Position numbers and translations under genes: made by a program
Notes under the pieces: generated by a model
Databases searched by the model: none
Seen by the model: the letters and a program-made list of their open reading frames with translations, nothing else
Told to the model about the DNA's origin: nothing
Shown here: piece by piece, positions 1,449-9,316 of the stretch
Numbering within the stretch: the first letter of the stretch is position 1
How the letters are laid out: each line of letters begins with the position of its first letter
NCBI GenBank assembly: GCA_020832415.1
Contig: JAFIES010000141.1
Coordinates: 1-64,000, forward strand
DNA: 64,000 bases
Direction of reading: 5' to 3'
Origin: Balneolaceae bacterium
GTDB lineage: Bacteria > Bacteroidota > Rhodothermia > Balneolales > Balneolaceae

Positions 1449-3122
1449 CTACTCCGGTTTACGTCGCCAGGCTGCAATTGCAAAACCCAGAGCCAACAGG
1501 GCGGGAATCATAGGCCACATAATGGTGGCTATATTTAAATCACTGTCGGCCTTTATGACTGATACCTTCCCTTCCATATAGGGATGCGGAGTACAGATGT
1601 ATGTGTAATCGCCCTCTTCTTCGAAAGTATAACTCCACGATTCGGCATGGGCCAGCATCGGTGAGTTCAAATTTGTGGGGCCTTCGGTTGAGACCACATT
1701 ATGAATTCCTGAATATTCACCGGCCAGATAACTGAATACATCCTCATTAATCCACGTCACCGTAGTGCCGGGTGTGATCTCTATTGTTTTAGGATAGTAG
1801 GAGTTACCTATAATATGTACGGTTACTTCTTTGGTGCCGTTTCCATAAACTGCAGGAGGGTCTATATCAGGAGTGCCGGCCTTAAATGGCGACATTATCC
1901 GGGTTGCATTTTCCTTCATTTCTGCCAGTTCCTCCTCTGTATAGAGCGGCCCGGTTGCTTCAACCCGCTTCGGTGTATCGGCGTTACGGTCGGCCACGAG
2001 CAGCCCGATTGCTCCTCGGCTTGTTGAACCCACGGCGTGGGATAGCATCGTGTAGGCACCTTCGTCCGGTGGAACACGAAACTCTATCACGAATGTATCA
2101 GACGGCCCGGCTGTTACAGTCTGGCCACCTGTTAATACATTTTCGGGGTGTCCCTGCCAATAGGCAAAATCCCAGACAATCCCCACAAGGTGAAAGGTTG
2201 AAACCAGGTTAGGCCCTACGTTCATAAAGTTGATCCGAACATAATCACCCGGCTTTGCTGTAATCGGTTCCTTCACATATTTAAAAATCTCACCATTGAA
2301 CGTTACGTAGGTAGGATTTCCTTCCACAGCGTTTTTCCCGCTGGAATACCACTCATGCTGAATCAGATCAATCTCTATATCGGGGCCGTGACCAAGCTCC
2401 TCTTCCAGTCTGAATTTCTGTTCAGCCGGTTCCACAATCATCATCCCGTACTGACCAAACATCACATGCATCGGAATGGCATGGCCACCCGGTGCGCAGT
2501 GGTACAAGTATATTCCAGGAATAGTCGCTTTAAATTTAAGAGATTTTGACTGCCCCGCAGGAATCTGTCCCAGATACTTGGAGGTTTGAGTGTAGGCAGC
2601 ATGAATTGACGCACCGTGCGGAATACTTCCATTGTTTTGCACTATTATCTCAACGATATCTCCTTCGGTTACCCTGAGTGTTGGCCCCGGTATAGAGCCA
2701 TTGGTTCGAAATCCATCATAAATAACTCCATTTCCTAAATAAGCCAAACCCTCATCCAGTTCGATGGTAAAGCTTATATCAGCCTCAACATCCTGGTCTA
2801 CAAAGCTTGTTGTTGGAATGGAGAGATTGGCATCTCTTTGAATAATTTCTATAAAATCACTGTCACTCTGGGGTGCATTTTGTGTGAACAGGTGGCGGGT
2901 AGCTTCTGCAAAATCGAGAGGCAGATTTTTTTGGGCCTCCATGGCAGCCATCAATTCATCACCTATCAGCGTACCCTTCATTTCAGTTTCAATCTGTTTT
3001 TTGTAGAGGGCATTGCATGCCGGGCATGCATTCGCCTGCTGTATGAATGCTGCAGTAAGGATCATGGGCAGTATTAATAGCAGCAGTAGTTTTTTTGTTA
3101 TGGCAGGTTTTACATTTTTCAT
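1449..3122 (-). CDS. nirK: NirK-like copper nitrite reductase with C-terminal cupredoxin domain
   Basis: A 557-residue exported multicopper protein. Residues 1-32 form a signal peptide, followed by a CPAC motif and helical linker. Residues 115-375 are two cupredoxin domains of the nitrite reductase type: H169 and H174 (PHGASIH), H208-C209 (YLYHCAP), H219 and H362 match the type 1/type 2 copper His and Cys ligands. Residues 430-523 are a third cupredoxin domain with H474, C510, H513 and M516. A membrane helix at about 530-552 ends in RRKPE, which would anchor it. By motif alignment with classical NirK, the catalytic Asp is S172, the catalytic His is V316 and the axial Met is Q224. It may therefore be a divergent nitrite reductase or another two-domain copper oxidase. 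The nos/ric context supports denitrification. Confidence 0.75.
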   Translation of the reverse strand: MKNVKPAITKKLLLLLILPMILTAAFIQQANACPACNALYKKQIETEMKGTLIGDELMAAMEAQKNLPLDFAEATRHLFTQNAPQSDSDFIEIIQRDANLSIPTTSFVDQDVEADISFTIELDEGLAYLGNGVIYDGFRTNGSIPGPTLRVTEGDIVEIIVQNNGSIPHGASIHAAYTQTSKYLGQIPAGQSKSLKFKATIPGIYLYHCAPGGHAIPMHVMFGQYGMMIVEPAEQKFRLEEELGHGPDIEIDLIQHEWYSSGKNAVEGNPTYVTFNGEIFKYVKEPITAKPGDYVRINFMNVGPNLVSTFHLVGIVWDFAYWQGHPENVLTGGQTVTAGPSDTFVIEFRVPPDEGAYTMLSHAVGSTSRGAIGLLVADRNADTPKRVEATGPLYTEEELAEMKENATRIMSPFKAGTPDIDPPAVYGNGTKEVTVHIIGNSYYPKTIEITPGTTVTWINEDVFSYLAGEYSGIHNVVSTEGPTNLNSPMLAHAESWSYTFEEEGDYTYICTPHPYMEGKVSVIKADSDLNIATIMWPMIPALLALGFAIAAWRRKPE

Positions 3123-3284: not shown

Positions 3285-3662
3285 TCAGGTCAGACGCGGA
3301 GGTGGTGTGGTATGCTTCAAAAAGGGTGATAAAAGATTCTGATGGATAGAAAAATAGTCTCTGAATACGTAGGTAAGCATGGCAGGAGATTGACTTGCCG
3401 AAATCTGTATAGGAATTGGATAATACTCCATATCTATAAGCGGAGTGTTATCATCGTTGCTCTCTTGCCAATCATCAGCGAGGGTAGTGAAGTCGTGCGA
3501 ACAAAAAGAATCCTGAGAACTTGAACCCTGGCTGCTGGATTGTAATTGCAATAGCTCAGGTAGGTCTCCCTTATACAGGTAAAACTTTGCCATAGGTAGT
3601 ATTGGTTGTATGATTCCAATACAAAACGAAATTATAAGTATGGCAGAGTAAACCCTTTTCAT
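3285..3662 (-). CDS. small secreted or membrane-anchored hypothetical protein
   Basis: Not recognised. The frame is open from 3725, but the ATG at 3662 gives a start immediately before a basic N terminus and hydrophobic segment (MKRVYSAILIISFCIGIIQP), typical of a signal peptide or single anchor. An ATG at 3686 is an alternative. The rest is about 100 polar residues rich in Ser, Gln and Asp, with a lone CSH motif and a C terminus ending in HTTPPPRLT. It lies upstream of the NirK-like gene on the same strand, separated by about 160 bases, and is divergent from ric. A link to copper or nitrite metabolism is only suggested by position. Confidence 0.45.
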   Translation of the reverse strand: MKRVYSAILIISFCIGIIQPILPMAKFYLYKGDLPELLQLQSSSQGSSSQDSFCSHDFTTLADDWQESNDDNTPLIDMEYYPIPIQISASQSPAMLTYVFRDYFSIHQNLLSPFLKHTTPPPRLT

Positions 3663-3762
3663 GGTTGTTGTCTGGTTATTGCTCATAACACATGTGAAAA
3701 ATTTGTAATGAGTGATAAATCTCACAATGCAAATTCAACATTATTATAATAAAATATTATAA

Positions 3763-3778
3763 AAGATAAAATTGTCTT
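3763..3778 (+). promoter_or_regulatory. candidate Rrf2-regulon operator upstream of ric
   Basis: AAGATAAAATTGTCTT is an imperfect palindrome (AAGA and TCTT ends). The first ten bases are identical to the elements at 5541 and 6043, and a weaker version lies at 15582. It lies 33-69 bases before the possible ric start codons. The regulator assignment is inferred from the two Rrf2 genes in the island. Confidence 0.45.
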
Positions 3779-3846
3779 ATATCTTAATAATAAATTCATG
3801 ATGTGTTGTTATGTTGTATTCTAAACCAATCTATTACATAAACTCA

Positions 3847-4596
3847 ATGATGAATGATATGAATATGAAAGAACAAACAGACCTTTCTCCTGAAATAACT
3901 GTAGGTGAAATCGTTGCTATGAACTATAATGCAGCCGGTGTCTTCAGGCAGTATGGACTCAATTTTTGTTGTGGTGGAGGAATATCACTGAAAGAAGCCT
4001 GTGAAAAAGGAAATGTTTATCTCGATGATGTTCTTATCCAGTTAAAGCAGCTCGAACGTTCAGGAACCGGTATAAATGAAAATTTCCTGGCCTGGGATAT
4101 CCCCTATTTAATCGCTCACATTGAGGAAACCCATCACCGGTTTGTGAGACAAAAAATTGAAGAGATTTCTGCCTATGCTCAAAAGGTAGCCGGTGTCCAC
4201 GGAGAAAGACATCCCGAAAATATCGATATTGACAGAACGTTCAATGAGCTTGCCATCGAAATGATGGATCACATGCAGGCGGAAGAGAATACCGTTTTCC
4301 CATTAATTGAAACCATCGCTGCAAAAAGGAAAAAGGGTGAGCCGGTGAGTGAAGAAGAGATTCTGAAGCTGAAAAAAGAACTGGCGGAAATGGAAGATGA
4401 TCATGATGGCGCAGGTAACCTGATGAAAAAATTAAGGGAATTAAGCCACAATTTTACCCCTCCGGCTGATGCATGTGCCACCTACCAGATTCTTTACAAA
4501 AACCTAGAAGGTTTTGAAAAAGATCTGCACAAACATGTACATCTCGAGAATAACATTCTTTTCAAAAAGGCTGAAGACCTGCTTCCGGTAAATTGA
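3847..4596 (+). CDS. ric: iron-sulfur cluster repair di-iron protein (RIC/ScdA/YtfE)
   Basis: Repairs Fe-S clusters damaged by nitric oxide or oxidants, using a hemerythrin-like di-iron centre in the cytoplasm. The N-terminal ScdA_N domain contains the conserved FRQYGLNFCCGGGISL segment with paired Cys. It is followed by a four-helix hemerythrin-like domain whose ligand helices carry HIEETHH, DHMQAEENTVFPLI, EDDHDG and HKHVHLENNILF. The frame is open from 3811; ATG codons at 3847, 3850, 3859 and 3865 are all possible. I give 3847 because known family members begin only about 10 residues before the domain. A palindromic motif at 3763 lies just upstream. Placement beside nirK, nosZ and Rrf2 genes fits NO detoxification. 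Confidence 0.9.
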   Translation: MMNDMNMKEQTDLSPEITVGEIVAMNYNAAGVFRQYGLNFCCGGGISLKEACEKGNVYLDDVLIQLKQLERSGTGINENFLAWDIPYLIAHIEETHHRFVRQKIEEISAYAQKVAGVHGERHPENIDIDRTFNELAIEMMDHMQAEENTVFPLIETIAAKRKKGEPVSEEEILKLKKELAEMEDDHDGAGNLMKKLRELSHNFTPPADACATYQILYKNLEGFEKDLHKHVHLENNILFKKAEDLLPVN

Positions 4597-4620: not shown

Positions 4621-5055
4621 ATGCCAACAGTTACACGCTGGTTTATTAAAGCCGGATTGATCTATTTCCTGATGGGAGTAATTTTGGCTTTCACGGCAGA
4701 ATTACCATTTATCAATTCCGGGGCACTGTTGCTCCCCGTTTACTGGCACATGCTGGTGATGGGCTGGCTCACTCAGATTATCATTGGAGTATCCATCTGG
4801 ATGTTCCCAAGAAAATGGAGAGACAAGAAAAAACGGGAATCCGTCTTGACCTGGCTTACGTTTTGGCTCTTAAATTCAGGACTGATTCTTCGTTTTTTTA
4901 CGGAACCCTTTCTGCCATTCTTTAATGATACATTAACTGTTCAGCTGATCATCATTACTTCTGCAATACTCCAGATCGCAGCTATCTGCACATACATTGC
5001 AGAAATCTGGCCAAGAGTACACTCCAAAAAGAGAAAAAGAGGGGTTTCTGCATGA
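4621..5055 (+). CDS. four-helix membrane protein, oxidase/NnrS-like (first of a pair)
   Basis: A 144-residue protein with four predicted membrane helices and a basic C-terminal tail. The second helix carries PVYWHMLVMGW followed by WMFPR. This resembles the low-spin-heme helix of cbb3/NO-reductase subunit I (PxH, then GW) and also the His/Met-rich helix of NnrS, but here the His (H43) is two residues later than in the oxidases. The gene follows ric by 24 bases and overlaps the next gene by ATGA, so translation of the pair is probably coupled. It is far too short for a complete oxidase (usually about 450 residues or more). Function unknown; heme binding and a role in NO handling are inferences. 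Confidence 0.75.
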   Translation: MPTVTRWFIKAGLIYFLMGVILAFTAELPFINSGALLLPVYWHMLVMGWLTQIIIGVSIWMFPRKWRDKKKRESVLTWLTFWLLNSGLILRFFTEPFLPFFNDTLTVQLIIITSAILQIAAICTYIAEIWPRVHSKKRKRGVSA

Positions 5056-5471
5056 TGCCAACCCTCTCTGTATGGATTTTGCGTCTTTCGCTGGTATATC
5101 TGTTTATTACAGCAATAAGCGGTTCTGTACTACTGATTCATAAATCAATTCCTTTGCATCCCGCAGCTTGGAGCCTGTTGCCTATCCATTTTGAAATGGC
5201 TATTTGGGGCTGGCTCGTACAGTTTGTAATGGGAACAGCTTACTGGATGTTTCCCCGATATCTTACGGGCCCCAAAAGAGGCAATGAAATTTTTGCAGTC
5301 ATCTCAGTAGTTTTATTGAATACAGGAATTTTACTTCTCATTTCCGCACCGTTTATTTCTCCGGATAATGCAATAAAAGCCATATCGAGGTTGGTAATTG
5401 TTGTGAGTGTAGCACTTTTTTCAGCTTCACTATGGAACAGGGTTTTGAGCTACAGAAGAGTGCCTCATTAG
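5052..5471 (+). CDS. four-helix membrane protein, oxidase/NnrS-like (second of a pair)
   Basis: A 139-residue paralogue of the preceding protein with four predicted helices. The matching helix reads LLPIHFEMAIWGW then YWMFPR. H46 is two residues after Pro and seven before Gly-Trp, the same spacing as the low-spin heme His of cbb3-type subunit I. At the aligned position of its partner's H43 it has E48, so the two proteins present different potential ligands. The overlap with the upstream gene (ATGA) suggests equal expression and perhaps a heterodimer. Followed by about 100 bases and the first rrf2 gene. Annotation pipelines often call such proteins cytochrome oxidase subunit I-like; real activity is unknown. 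Confidence 0.75.
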   Translation: MMPTLSVWILRLSLVYLFITAISGSVLLIHKSIPLHPAAWSLLPIHFEMAIWGWLVQFVMGTAYWMFPRYLTGPKRGNEIFAVISVVLLNTGILLLISAPFISPDNAIKAISRLVIVVSVALFSASLWNRVLSYRRVPH

Positions 5472-5573: not shown

Positions 5574-6026
5574 ATGCTGCTATCAAATACGTGTATTTAT
5601 GGATTAAGAGCTTCTGTTTTGCTGGCCTCAAAAGAAGGTGACAAATTTGTTACCATCAGAGAGTTAAGCGATGAACTGCATATCTCATTCCACTTTCTTA
5701 CTAAAGTATTGCAGCAGTTAACAAAATCAGAATTACTTCAATCATACAAGGGGCCCAACGGAGGGGTAAAACTTGCCAGGCCGGCCTCACAAATAACCTT
5801 TATGGACGTTGTGATTTCAATTGATGGAGAAAATATCATAAAAGAGTGTGCACTTGGTTTGCCGGGCTGCGGCGAATTGAAACCCTGCCCTCTTCACGAC
5901 CAATGGTCGGCCATGAAGGAGAACATTCTCCGAATGATGCGGGATGTTTCTCTTAAACAGCTGGCAGCAAACAAAAACTCAGATCCGTTAAAACAACTTG
6001 CATCAGTACATGCTTTAAAAAAGTAG
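5574..6026 (+). CDS. Rrf2-family transcriptional regulator (NsrR/IscR-like), copy 1
   Basis: A cytoplasmic DNA-binding regulator of 150 residues. The winged-helix domain is seen from the MLLSNTCIYGLRASVLLAS start through SFHFLTKVLQQL and the wing KGPNGGVKLARP. Three Cys in ECALGLPGCGELKPCPLHD form the Fe-S binding loop typical of Rrf2 regulators that sense NO or Fe-S status. It lies between the ric/membrane pair and the nos operon and is preceded by a palindromic element also found before ric and the cytochrome/nosZ operon. A role as NO-responsive repressor or activator of this island is a reasonable inference. A close paralogue lies at 15621. Confidence 0.92.
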   Translation: MLLSNTCIYGLRASVLLASKEGDKFVTIRELSDELHISFHFLTKVLQQLTKSELLQSYKGPNGGVKLARPASQITFMDVVISIDGENIIKECALGLPGCGELKPCPLHDQWSAMKENILRMMRDVSLKQLAANKNSDPLKQLASVHALKK

Positions 6027-6042
6027 TTTTTTTAGTAGTTAA

Positions 6043-6058
6043 AAGATAAAATAGTATT
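6043..6058 (+). promoter_or_regulatory. candidate operator upstream of the cytochrome c-nosZ operon
   Basis: AAGATAAAATAGTATT ends 12 bases before the cytochrome start codon and shares its first ten bases with the elements at 3763 and 5541. The right half is less palindromic (TATT rather than TCTT). Confidence 0.4.
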
Positions 6059-6070
6059 AATTCAGTTATA

Positions 6071-6553
6071 ATGAACACCTATAAACCAATACTTACTTCT
6101 ATTGCACTCTTCCTTCTCATACCGCTTTTCTATGCCTGCGGAGGTGAAGAATCTTCCGATCGCCAAACCTCACAACCGGAAGTTGAAGAAGCGGGCCTTT
6201 CAGATTTTGAACTCGAACATGGAATAGGCCCTGTTACGGAACCGGTAGAAATCGGAGAGATTGATCCCGACCTGGTTACCAAAGGCCGGAACATTTACGA
6301 AATGAAATGTGAAATGTGCCACAATTACCAAGGGCGTATGGTAGGGCCGGAGCTTGGCAATGTACTTGAAAGGAGAAGCCCTGAGTTTGTTATGAACTTT
6401 ATTCTGAACCCTGGCGGAATGACACGGGATCACCCTGTGGGCCAGGAATTGCTTCGGGAATATATGACGGTAATGCCCTTTCAAAATGTGCAAAGAGATG
6501 AGGCCAGAGCCATCGTGGAGTACCTGCGATTCTATTACGAAGAAAATTATTAA
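6071..6553 (+). CDS. lipoprotein monoheme cytochrome c (nos-associated)
   Basis: A 160-residue periplasmic electron carrier anchored by a lipid. The signal peptide ends in a lipobox-like FYAC. A single heme site is visible as KCEMCHNYQG (CxxCH), and a likely axial Met lies in LREYMTVMPFQN near the C terminus. A low-complexity acidic linker of about 40 residues separates anchor and heme domain. The gene lies 32 bases before nosZ and is probably its co-transcribed electron donor, as in other clade II nos clusters where small cytochromes c accompany nosZ. Start ATG at 6071 is directly before the signal peptide. Confidence 0.88.
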   Translation: MNTYKPILTSIALFLLIPLFYACGGEESSDRQTSQPEVEEAGLSDFELEHGIGPVTEPVEIGEIDPDLVTKGRNIYEMKCEMCHNYQGRMVGPELGNVLERRSPEFVMNFILNPGGMTRDHPVGQELLREYMTVMPFQNVQRDEARAIVEYLRFYYEENY

Positions 6554-6585: not shown

Positions 6586-8562
6586 ATGGATAATAAAAAA
6601 TCTAACACACTACGCGGATTGCTTCTCGGAGCAGGCTTTATAGCTGTTGCAGCGTTCATCTTTACGGGTTGTCCGTCGCAACAAAGCATGTTCGATTCCG
6701 GTGATGCCGCACAAAAAGTGTACGTAGCACCGGGTGAGCATGATGAATACTACGGATTCTTCTCAGGCGGCTATAGCGGCCAGTTAAGTGTTTGGGGACT
6801 CCCTTCAGCACGTTTTCTGAAAGTGATACCGGTCTTCTCACAAGATCCGGAAACCGGCTACGGATATTCCGAAGAAACCAAACCGTTATTGATGACCAGT
6901 TACGGGTTCATCCCCTGGGATGACTCTCACCATCCGCATATTTCTCAAACCAATGGCGATGCCGATGGTCGATGGATCTACATCAATGCCAATAATACAC
7001 CACGTATTGCACGGATTGATCTGCAAACATTCGAAACCAAAGAGATTCTTGAACTGCCAAATACAGGCGGTAACCACGCATCTTCATTTGTTACATCAAA
7101 CTCTGAGTATGTAATTGGTGCCACCCGTTTCAGTATCCCTTACGAAATGGATCTTGATGTGCCTATCGACAGTTACAGCGAAGAGTTTAGGGGAGCTCTC
7201 TCTTTTATCGCTCTGGACCCTGAAACCGGTATGATGGAGATGGACTTCCAGATTCTGGTTCCTCCCTACAACTACGACCTTGGCCGTGCAGGTAAAGGCC
7301 CGTCGTCCGACTGGGTATTTTTCACCACATACAATACAGAAGAAGCCCACACACTGCTTGAAGTGAACGCATCCCGTAATGATAAAGATTACGTGGCAGC
7401 TGTAAACTGGAAACGTGCAGCAGAACTGGTTCGCAATGGCGCCGGTGAGACCATGAGTGCCGAGTACTACCACAACTACTACGAAGGTAACCAGGGCATC
7501 GCCATAAACGATGTTAAAGATCAGGTAACGGTTCTCACACCGCAAGATGGCCAGAATTTTATTTACTTCCTGCCAACACCTAAATCTCCCCACGGGGTTG
7601 ATATCGACCCAACCGGAGAGTACATCGTTGCGGGTGGTAAACTTGCAACCGTAATTCCTGTTCACTCATTCTCACGAATGATTGAAGCCATCGAAAACCA
7701 GCGATTTGAAGGACATGTAGAAAATATTCCAATTCTTGATTACGATGCAACCATCATTGGCGAAGTTGAAAATCCGGGACTGGGCCCGCTCCACACCGAA
7801 TTTGATGGCAGAGGATACGCATATACCTCCGTGTATATTTCATCCGAAATTGTAAAGTGGTCGCTCGAAACGTTTGAAGTTGTTGACAGAATCGATGCAT
7901 ATTACTCCATTGGTCACCTGATGATTACCGGCGGCGACACCAAAAATCCTGACGCAAGGTACCTTGTTGGATTAACCAAAACCGCAAAAGACAGATACCT
8001 CCCAACGGGGCCAAAACAGAATCACCCCGCGCAGTTGTATGATATCAGCGGAGACAGAATGCAGCTTCTTCTCGATTTCCCAACCATCGGTGAACCTCAC
8101 TATGCACAGGCAATTCGTGCCGATATTGTTACACCGAATGTGAAACAGATCTATGAAATGGAAGATAACGATCACCCCTATGCACTTCGCAGGGTAGCTG
8201 ATAATCGTGTAGAGCGCGATGGTGATGTGGTTCGTATCTATATGTCATCAACCAGAAGCCATTTCCGGCCGGATAATATTGAAGGTATCCGTGTGGGTGA
8301 TACTGTTTACATTCACCTGACCAACCTTGAGCAGGAGTGGGACGTGGTTCACGGCATCGCTGTTAAAGGTGCGAACAACTCGGAAATTCTTGTAGCACCG
8401 GGGCAAACCAAATCGATAAAATGGGAGCCCACAAGAACGGGTATCTATCCATTCTACTGCACCGCTTTCTGTTCTGCGCTGCACCAGGAAATGCAGGGAT
8501 ACATTCGAGTATCAGCTGCCGACTCTGATGTTCCGCTTACATGGAGTACTGGCGGCAACTAA
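6586..8562 (+). CDS. nosZ: nitrous oxide reductase, clade II (Sec-type)
   Basis: Reduces N2O to N2 in the periplasm. The 658-residue protein has a seven-bladed propeller with the CuZ His ligands in segments such as SHHPHISQTNGDADGRW, SPHGVDIDPTGEY and GPLHTEFDGRG. The C-terminal cupredoxin domain carries the CuA ligands H588, C625, C629, H633 and M636 (YCTAFCSALHQEM). The N terminus is a Sec-type signal without a twin-arginine motif, as expected for clade II. It ends in FTGC with C29, suggesting a lipoprotein attached to a membrane. It is the second gene of an operon led by a cytochrome c and followed by nosB-like, nosL, nosD, nosF and nosY genes. Confidence 0.97.
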   Translation: MDNKKSNTLRGLLLGAGFIAVAAFIFTGCPSQQSMFDSGDAAQKVYVAPGEHDEYYGFFSGGYSGQLSVWGLPSARFLKVIPVFSQDPETGYGYSEETKPLLMTSYGFIPWDDSHHPHISQTNGDADGRWIYINANNTPRIARIDLQTFETKEILELPNTGGNHASSFVTSNSEYVIGATRFSIPYEMDLDVPIDSYSEEFRGALSFIALDPETGMMEMDFQILVPPYNYDLGRAGKGPSSDWVFFTTYNTEEAHTLLEVNASRNDKDYVAAVNWKRAAELVRNGAGETMSAEYYHNYYEGNQGIAINDVKDQVTVLTPQDGQNFIYFLPTPKSPHGVDIDPTGEYIVAGGKLATVIPVHSFSRMIEAIENQRFEGHVENIPILDYDATIIGEVENPGLGPLHTEFDGRGYAYTSVYISSEIVKWSLETFEVVDRIDAYYSIGHLMITGGDTKNPDARYLVGLTKTAKDRYLPTGPKQNHPAQLYDISGDRMQLLLDFPTIGEPHYAQAIRADIVTPNVKQIYEMEDNDHPYALRRVADNRVERDGDVVRIYMSSTRSHFRPDNIEGIRVGDTVYIHLTNLEQEWDVVHGIAVKGANNSEILVAPGQTKSIKWEPTRTGIYPFYCTAFCSALHQEMQGYIRVSAADSDVPLTWSTGGN

Positions 8563-8731: not shown

Positions 8732-9316
8732 ATGGAAATTAAATCAAGAATAGTAATGACGCTGGCAGCTTTGATGCTTATCGGCCTCTACTACCAGCCA
8801 TTCTGGACCATCGACATGTCGGCACCACAGTACCCCGAAGGTATCGGGATGTACATTCACATTAATGATGTAACCGGCCACAATCGCCACGATCTGCAGA
8901 GCATTAACACGCTTAACCACTACATAGGTATGGCAGAAATTCACAAAGAAGATTTCTGGGAGTTTGAAGTAATGCCGTGGATTTTTGGCTTTCTGATTGC
9001 TTTCGGGCTAATAGCTGCTGCTGTTGGCAATATAAAACTGGTAATTACCTGGCTAGCACTGATGGTAGTATTGGGAATTCTGGGATTTGTAGACTTTTAC
9101 ATGTGGGGATATGAATATGGCCACAACCTCAGCCCTGATGCACCCATTAAAGTGCCGGGTATGAGCTATCAGCCGCCCATGCTTGGTTGCAAACAACTCC
9201 TGAACATCAATGCGTGCTCCTGGCCCTATATCGGCTCCATCTACTTAGGGCTTTCGGTAATGCTGGCCGGAGGTGTAATCTGGATCGAAAAATTTTCAAA
9301 AAAACAGAACACGTAA
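8732..9316 (+). CDS. NosB-like four-helix membrane protein of the nos operon
   Basis: A 194-residue integral membrane protein with helices near residues 8-25, 78-97, 100-122 and 166-185. The loop after helix 1 is exported-looking and contains His and Met residues (GMYIHINDV, NHYIGMAEIHK). The loop before helix 4 contains two Cys in MLGCKQLLNINACSWP. Clade II nos clusters commonly encode a conserved membrane protein directly after nosZ (often named nosB); its function is not established. Position between nosZ and nosL fits that protein. A role in copper delivery or electron transfer to NosZ is inference. Confidence 0.75.
   Translation: MEIKSRIVMTLAALMLIGLYYQPFWTIDMSAPQYPEGIGMYIHINDVTGHNRHDLQSINTLNHYIGMAEIHKEDFWEFEVMPWIFGFLIAFGLIAAAVGNIKLVITWLALMVVLGILGFVDFYMWGYEYGHNLSPDAPIKVPGMSYQPPMLGCKQLLNINACSWPYIGSIYLGLSVMLAGGVIWIEKFSKKQNT

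What the first reader, a model, noticed from the sequence alone, without database searches (positions are those of the whole stretch)
4621..5471. Paired 4-helix proteins carrying an oxidase-like heme helix, next to ric
Two overlapping genes encode 144- and 139-residue membrane proteins. Seen: both have a helix with P, then H, then Gly-Trp and a WMFPR end. In the second the spacing P-x-H-x6-G-W matches the low-spin heme helix of cbb3/NOR subunit I. In the first the His is two residues later, and each has a different residue where the other has His. They are a third of the length of any oxidase. Inference: a heterodimer may bind a heme or metal across the pair and handle NO or electrons. They sit between ric and an Rrf2 gene and share its candidate operator.
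Basis: partly seen in the sequence, partly recalled or inferred. Interest (0 to 1): 0.68.

Follow-up and report, generated by a model that had tools for sequence, protein, structure and literature searches.

The report
Split oxidase-like heme protein pair
Two small neighbouring genes in a denitrifying bacterium each encode one third of the membrane core of a respiratory oxidase and between them carry the two histidines that hold an electron-carrying heme, so they look like a two-piece heme protein of the nitric-oxide response that no paper I found describes.

Summary
Confirmed and sharpened. A (4621-5055) and B (5052-5471) are homologous 4-helix membrane proteins, always adjacent in the class. 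Profiles link them to heme-copper oxidase (HCO) subunit I: COX1 is matched by 18 of 21 A and 21 of 21 B, though both window proteins fall below Pfam's cut-off. Each corresponds to one of the three 4-helix repeats of subunit I. The model of a fused A+B pair (pLDDT 90, pTM 0.88) lies on two consecutive repeats of cbb3, aa3 and NOR subunit I (Z about 21); the window's own A lies on the third repeat (Z about 14). B's invariant His sits at the helix-II low-spin-heme position; A's sits at the second His of the helix-X HxH, which holds the same heme. So the pair carries the bis-His low-spin heme set split over two proteins, without the CuB/high-spin ligands. An undescribed 12-helix family (flavobacterial ric and nos loci, rhizobial nirK/nnrS loci) fuses the same two units. 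Context is NO response: ric operon, Rrf2 gene, NsrR-like operators, nirK and nosZ nearby. The genome has no detected NO reductase. Heme binding, stoichiometry and activity are untested.

The parts
4621..5055 (+). Protein A, 144 aa, 4 TM helices; one HCO-type repeat; invariant His43 (codon 4747-4749) at the H-x4-GW position (second His of the helix-X HxH)
5052..5471 (+). Protein B, 139 aa, 4 TM helices; one HCO-type repeat; invariant His46 (codon 5187-5189) at the H-x6-GW position (helix-II low-spin heme His), with a nearly invariant Glu48
3811..4596 (+). ric (YtfE/ScdA-type iron-sulfur cluster repair di-iron protein); first gene of the probable ric-A-B operon, 25 bases before A
   Evidence: TIGR03652 231 bits over cut-off 204.7
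3763..3785 (+). Candidate NsrR/Rrf2-type operator AAGATAAAATTGTCTTATATCTT, 17 of 18 positions of AAGATAAAA-N5-TTTTATCTT, 48 bases before the ric ORF
   Evidence: conserved before ric in several congeners, full 18/18 in L039
5541..5563 (+). Same operator motif (16 of 18) before the Rrf2 gene
5574..6026 (+). Rrf2-family regulator with a three-Cys stretch (CALGLPGCGELKPC), likely the NsrR-like repressor of the locus
   Evidence: PF02082 3e-29; rrf2_super over cut-off; NsrR and IscR models below theirs
6041..6065 (+). Weaker copy of the motif before the cytochrome c gene (13 of 18)
6071..6553 (+). Cytochrome c gene, first gene of the nos cluster (context)
6586..8562 (+). nosZ, N2O reductase (context); homologues found in 44 of 59 relatives
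1449..3122 (-). NirK-like copper nitrite reductase with a C-terminal cupredoxin domain (context); below the TIGR02376 cut-off

Best explanation
A and B are single-repeat members of the heme-copper oxidase superfamily. They associate side by side in the inner membrane like two neighbouring 4-helix repeats of subunit I. One heme b is held at their interface near the periplasmic face, with axial ligands His43 of A (equivalent to the second His of helix X) and His46 of B (equivalent to the helix-II His): the low-spin heme site without the CuB/high-spin catalytic site. The complex is made with the ric protein when an NsrR-like Rrf2 repressor loses its hold in the presence of NO. It acts as a membrane cytochrome b of the NO response, most likely binding NO at the heme (one His displaced) or passing quinol electrons to NO or to a periplasmic partner. 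Shown by computation: homology, fold, ligand register, pair linkage, gene context. Inferred: heme binding, heterodimer, NO control. Guess: the chemical role.
For: Pfam COX1 is matched by 18 of 21 A and all 21 B (best 7.8e-08 and 4.8e-10). Profile-profile: A-B 99.7-99.8%; A to a 12-helix family 96%; that family to HCO subunit I 97% colinear; B to HCO helix-II repeat 89%. Fused A-B model pLDDT 90.2, pTM 0.88; all 50 listed VIA matches are HCO/NOR subunit I, Z 18-21, 257-275 residues over two consecutive repeats. Window A alone: pLDDT 89; top 40 listed matches are HCO subunit I, nearly all at the third repeat. In one search, A+B aligns to repeats 1+2 of the 12-helix family with both His invariant in all 11 rows. 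In the order the repeats go round the ring, A-type His followed by B-type His is the arrangement of the HCO low-spin heme (helix X then helix II). Context: ric operon, operator, nirK co-occurrence 16/23 vs 10/36, p=0.003.
Against: No heme could be modelled and no coordinates were available, so the His-His distance is unmeasured. The fused-pair alignment held 12-helix rows spanning both halves, which may steer the packing. The modelled pair (L083) is only about 30% identical to the window proteins. Foldseek alone gave E no better than 6.7e-03. B's Glu48 could point to a metal rather than a heme. Four of 23 pair-bearing genomes also have a NOR-like HCO, so the pair does not simply replace one.
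Confidence: 0.5

Rival explanations
1. Hetero-oligomeric ring of three 4-helix units (A2B, AB2, or A and B homotrimers) with heme at each interface and one open coordination site, working like the trimeric heme-b enzyme styrene oxide isomerase (SOI): a catalytic heme that reacts with NO rather than an electron relay.
For: HCO subunit I is a ring of three such units; two units leave it open. Window A also resembles trimeric 4-helix enzymes: SOI Z 10.2, MAPEG enzymes Z about 10. In SOI heme b sits at the trimer interface on one His, H58 (PMC11374702).
Against: Those matches are well below the HCO ones (Z 13-14) and may reflect only a common helix bundle. Both His are invariant and at complementary positions, which favours one bis-His site.
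Confidence: 0.2
2. Non-heme metal site (Fe or Cu) made by His43 of A with His46 and Glu48 of B, used as an NO or redox sensor or metal store.
For: Glu48 of B is present in 25 of 28 sequences at the position where A has its His.
Against: Residue spacing matches heme-ligand helices of CcoN exactly. The 12-helix relatives carry His or a small or aliphatic residue, not Glu, at that position in repeat 2, so the acid is not a shared ligand.
Confidence: 0.12
3. Cofactor-free accessory or assembly subunits for an oxidase, nitrite reductase electron donor or membrane repair complex; His kept for structure.
For: HCO-like accessory chains exist: a 470-506 aa HCO-like protein sits in the gNOR-like cluster of relatives. 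The pair sits in the ric operon, away from oxidase genes.
Against: Invariance of two differently placed membrane His across the class and into rhizobial 12-helix relatives is hard to explain without a ligand.
Confidence: 0.15
4. A minimal NO reductase: the pair reduces NO to N2O in denitrifiers that have nirK and nosZ but no NOR.
For: Own genome has only an aa3-type and a ba3-type COX1 hit and no NOR; nirK and nosZ are adjacent.
Against: No equivalent of the CuB/FeB His triad. The ba3 oxidase could reduce NO, and the genome is a 95%-complete draft in 152 contigs. Four relatives have both the pair and a NOR-like HCO.
Confidence: 0.08

Closest known systems
Heme-copper oxidase / NO reductase subunit I (COX1, PF00115; CcoN, NorB)
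   Same: Fold of a 4-helix repeat, helix-2 motif with P-x-H...GW...PR, N-in topology with the His near the periplasmic end, positions of the two low-spin heme ligands
   Different: One third the length per gene, split in two genes, no CuB/FeB His triad, no high-spin heme ligand beyond the two His, below the Pfam cut-off
Unnamed 12-helix family (421 aa in flavobacteria, about 450 aa in rhizobia; 'hypothetical protein')
   Same: Three fused repeats; repeat 1 has the A-type His and repeat 2 the B-type His, both invariant in 13 sequences; flanked by DUF59, DUF2249, ric, nirK or nnrS
   Different: Single chain with a third repeat lacking His; no Pfam or NCBIfam match for the S. meliloti one
Single 151-aa relatives of flavobacteria (L088-L095, L102)
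   Same: One 4-helix repeat; COX1 hit above the Pfam cut-off in L088 (36.5 bits); next to the 12-helix gene in L088, L089, L091, L093, L095 and L102; ric within the same stretch in three of these
   Different: No second gene; mostly both His of HxH in one protein
NnrS (PF05940)
   Same: Heme-copper membrane protein of NO regulons (PMC1274295); an HxH-E-M motif that looks alike by eye
   Different: No profile similarity found here (hhalign 11% or less)
Styrene oxide isomerase
   Same: Small 4-helix membrane protein, heme b at a subunit interface
   Different: Homotrimer with one His per heme; weak structural match only; unrelated pathway

Membership tests
Heme-copper oxidase superfamily (subunit I) | Sequence profile similarity to subunit I | tested here: met
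   COX1 E 6.8e-06 (A) and 4.7e-05 (B), below the curated cut-off; 18/21 and 21/21 homologues match; profile chain through the 12-helix family
Heme-copper oxidase superfamily (subunit I) | Subunit I fold (4-helix repeats in a ring) | tested here: met
   Two repeats: Z 21.2, 3.2 A, 267 residues to cbb3 8smr_E; one repeat: Z 14.3, 2.7 A, 132 residues to qNOR 6t6v
Heme-copper oxidase superfamily (subunit I) | Twelve helices in one chain | tested here: not met
   Four helices per gene
Heme-copper oxidase superfamily (subunit I) | Two His ligands of the low-spin heme | tested here: met
   By position in sequence alignment only: B His46 = helix-II His; A His43 = second His of helix X; binding itself not tested
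Functional HCO/NOR enzyme | CuB/FeB His triad and high-spin heme His | tested here: not met
   Only one conserved membrane His per protein
Functional HCO/NOR enzyme | Bound heme, O2 or NO reduction | not testable with these tools
   -
NnrS (PF05940) | Match to the NnrS profile | tested here: not met
   No PF05940 hit at E up to 1 for A or B; hhalign to seven NnrS at most 10.7%
NsrR regulon | NsrR-type operator and Rrf2 regulator | tested here: inconclusive
   gATAAAA-N5-TTTTATc has the published layout gATGyAT-N5-ATrCATc (PMC1274295) but differs inside the half-sites; regulator identity not assayed
MAPEG / styrene oxide isomerase 4-helix trimers | Homotrimeric 4-helix fold | tested here: inconclusive
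   Z about 10, below the helical-bundle noise level quoted by the tool; oligomer state untested

The most novel reading that the evidence does not exclude
A-B is a living single-repeat, split form of the heme-copper oxidase core that assembles a heme site between chains and reduces NO in denitrifiers lacking any NO reductase; it would show that the 12-helix oxidase core can work as separate 4-helix modules, as expected if it arose by triplication.
Probability: 0.1. Interest if true: 0.9.

Novelty: new variant of a known kind. Interest (0 to 1): 0.64.

Why it matters
The core of all respiratory heme-copper oxidases and NO reductases is a ring of three 4-helix repeats, and it is natural to suppose it arose from a smaller unit. 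Free-standing one-repeat proteins that carry complementary heme ligands in two genes make that testable at the bench. The pair is also a candidate for the NO step or NO defence in nirK+nosZ bacteria without a recognised NO reductase, which bears on N2O budgets, and its 12-helix relatives sit unnoticed beside nirK in rhizobia.

Tried and rejected
Plain sequence search against solved structures with A or B profiles found nothing meaningful. NnrS as a relative: looked plausible by eye (HxHEM..GF) but gave no profile support. A gNOR-cluster HCO-like subunit of relatives is not the 12-helix family. A CopD-like 4-helix gene often found between ric and A, and a 405-aa protein with HAHSH..GW before A in L049, are not homologous to A or B by profile. 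A third 4-helix partner homologous to the pair was looked for in the own genome: only A and B themselves match. Literature searches for 4-helix HCO relatives or triplication found no description; subscription papers are not covered.

Full report
OBSERVATION. The two ORFs exist as stated, with a 4-base ATGA overlap. A starts 25 bases after the ric stop, so ric-A-B is probably one transcript. A has only two His (43, 134) and B four (30, 36, 46, 139); His43 lies near the start of helix 2 of the A model, and His46 at the aligned place in B. With four helices, a basic loop after helix 2 and a basic C-terminus, the N and C termini are predicted cytoplasmic, so both His lie towards the periplasm, as heme ligands do in oxidases (topology inferred from charge).

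DISTRIBUTION. A query with A found A, nearly always with B beside it, in 23 of 59 related genomes; B is itself found by A (29% identity, 1e-14 in this genome). Neighbourhoods show A directly followed by B in the window and in all 20 genome stretches read first, plus 7 further pairs in the class. No A without B was seen in the class where the neighbourhood was read. In other families of the phylum a single 151-aa relative occurs, often beside a 421-aa 12-helix protein and a DUF59 gene, with ric, Rrf2 or nos genes nearby in several. The 12-helix protein also occurs in rhizobia between DUF2249 genes, DUF59, nnrS and nirK, annotated only as hypothetical protein; the S. meliloti one has no Pfam or NCBIfam match.

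FAMILY. Pfam COX1 is the only family with consistent hits: A 6.8e-06, B 4.7e-05, both below the cut-off, but 18/21 A and 21/21 B homologues match. hhalign: A-B 99.8%; A to the 12-helix family 96.2% at its middle repeat and weaker at the first and third; the 12-helix family to an HCO set 97% over 339 columns, colinear, plus alignments shifted by one repeat as expected for an internal repeat; B to the HCO helix-II repeat 89%. NnrS showed nothing.

LIGAND REGISTER. Written from the first His position to PR: CcoN helix II PIHTNVVFWGW...VVPR; B PIHFEMAIWGW...MFPR; CcoN helix X IAHSHFTMYGF...LLPR; A PVYWHMLVMGW...MFPR. In oxidases the helix-II His and the second helix-X His hold the low-spin heme, and the first helix-X His holds the high-spin heme (established knowledge). 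B thus has the helix-II ligand and A the helix-X low-spin ligand. Counts in 28 sequences each: A second position His 27; B first position His 27, second position Glu 25. When A+B is read as one chain it aligns to repeats 1+2 of the 12-helix proteins with both His invariant in all 11 rows. In oxidases the A-type His is on repeat 3 and the B-type on repeat 1, again neighbours in the ring, so the site is the same kind of site rotated by one repeat. The CuB/FeB ligands are missing.

FOLD. No multimer tool was on hand, so I used a related pair whose genes are in frame (L083), reading the single TAA between them as Gly: pLDDT 90.2, pTM 0.88, eight helices. VIA-align: every one of the 50 listed chains is an HCO or NOR subunit I, Z 18.4-21.2, with 257-275 residues aligned over two consecutive repeats. 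Foldseek alone ranked cbb3, ba3 and NOR first, but at E 0.007 or worse. Caveats: the alignment held 12-helix rows spanning both halves, which may steer packing, and L083 is about 30% identical to the window proteins. The window's own A, predicted alone (pLDDT 89.4), matches HCO subunit I in its top 40 rows, nearly all at the third repeat, as the His register would predict. Weaker matches to trimeric 4-helix enzymes include styrene oxide isomerase, which holds heme b at subunit interfaces.

CONTEXT AND REGULATION. The motif AAGATAAAA-N5-TTTTATCTT is matched 17/18 before ric and 16/18 before Rrf2 in the window, and recurs before ric and Rrf2 in congeners, up to 18/18. In upstream stretches its core is about eight times denser than in the coding stretches of the same genes; the consensus was chosen from these sites, so those p-values are not independent. 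Layout agrees with the published NsrR motif. Pair-bearing genomes have nirK more often (16/23 vs 10/36, p=0.003; in the genus 12/14 vs 4/14, p=0.006) and nosZ more often (22/23 vs 22/36, p=0.005). These tests ignore phylogeny and draft gaps.

NO REDUCTASE GAP. The own genome has only two full COX1 genes, which I read from their motifs as aa3-type and ba3-type. Four of 23 pair-bearing genomes also carry a 575-576 aa HCO with GHHSQQ and no HPEVY, which I take to be a gNOR-type enzyme; none of the 36 others shows one. The pair is therefore neither a strict replacement for NOR nor a NOR subunit.

VERDICT. A two-piece, repeat-level relative of heme-copper oxidases in an NO-response operon. Family and fold are well supported; a shared heme is likely but unproven; function is inferred.

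Noticed in passing
L106:18232-19590 (S. meliloti pSymA), L111:9001-10350, L112:9001-10359: A 12-helix HCO-like membrane protein annotated 'hypothetical', between DUF2249 genes and DUF59, beside nnrS and nirK in rhizobia; no Pfam or NCBIfam match for the S. meliloti one.
   Followed up: partly
L036:6442-6930, L041:3307-3795 and equivalents: A CopD-like 4-helix gene lies between ric and A in many congeners; it is missing from the window and no close match was found in its genome (one search had no positive control).
   Followed up: partly
L154:6218-10082, L155:4413-8383, L158:4744-8603: gNOR-like cluster with a second 470-506 aa HCO-like protein of low similarity to subunit I; profile match to HCO 87%, none to the 12-helix family.
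   Followed up: partly
L049:4783-6000: A 405-aa membrane protein with RHAHSHLMFFGW just before A-B in a relative (G030); no Pfam match and no profile link to A, B or the 12-helix family.
   Followed up: partly
window 3285-3725 (-): 146-aa ORF with no Pfam match, divergent from ric, conserved in some relatives (L001, L036, L037, L044).
   Followed up: no
window 8732-9316 (+): 194-aa membrane protein after nosZ with no clear family; conserved in nos clusters of relatives, possibly NosB-like.
   Followed up: no
L097:5861-7219 (-): Ric-like protein with three N-terminal repeats (LEPRxKHPTVFxYFDALxAGExFIIENDHDPKPL) that look like DUF2249 by eye.
   Followed up: no
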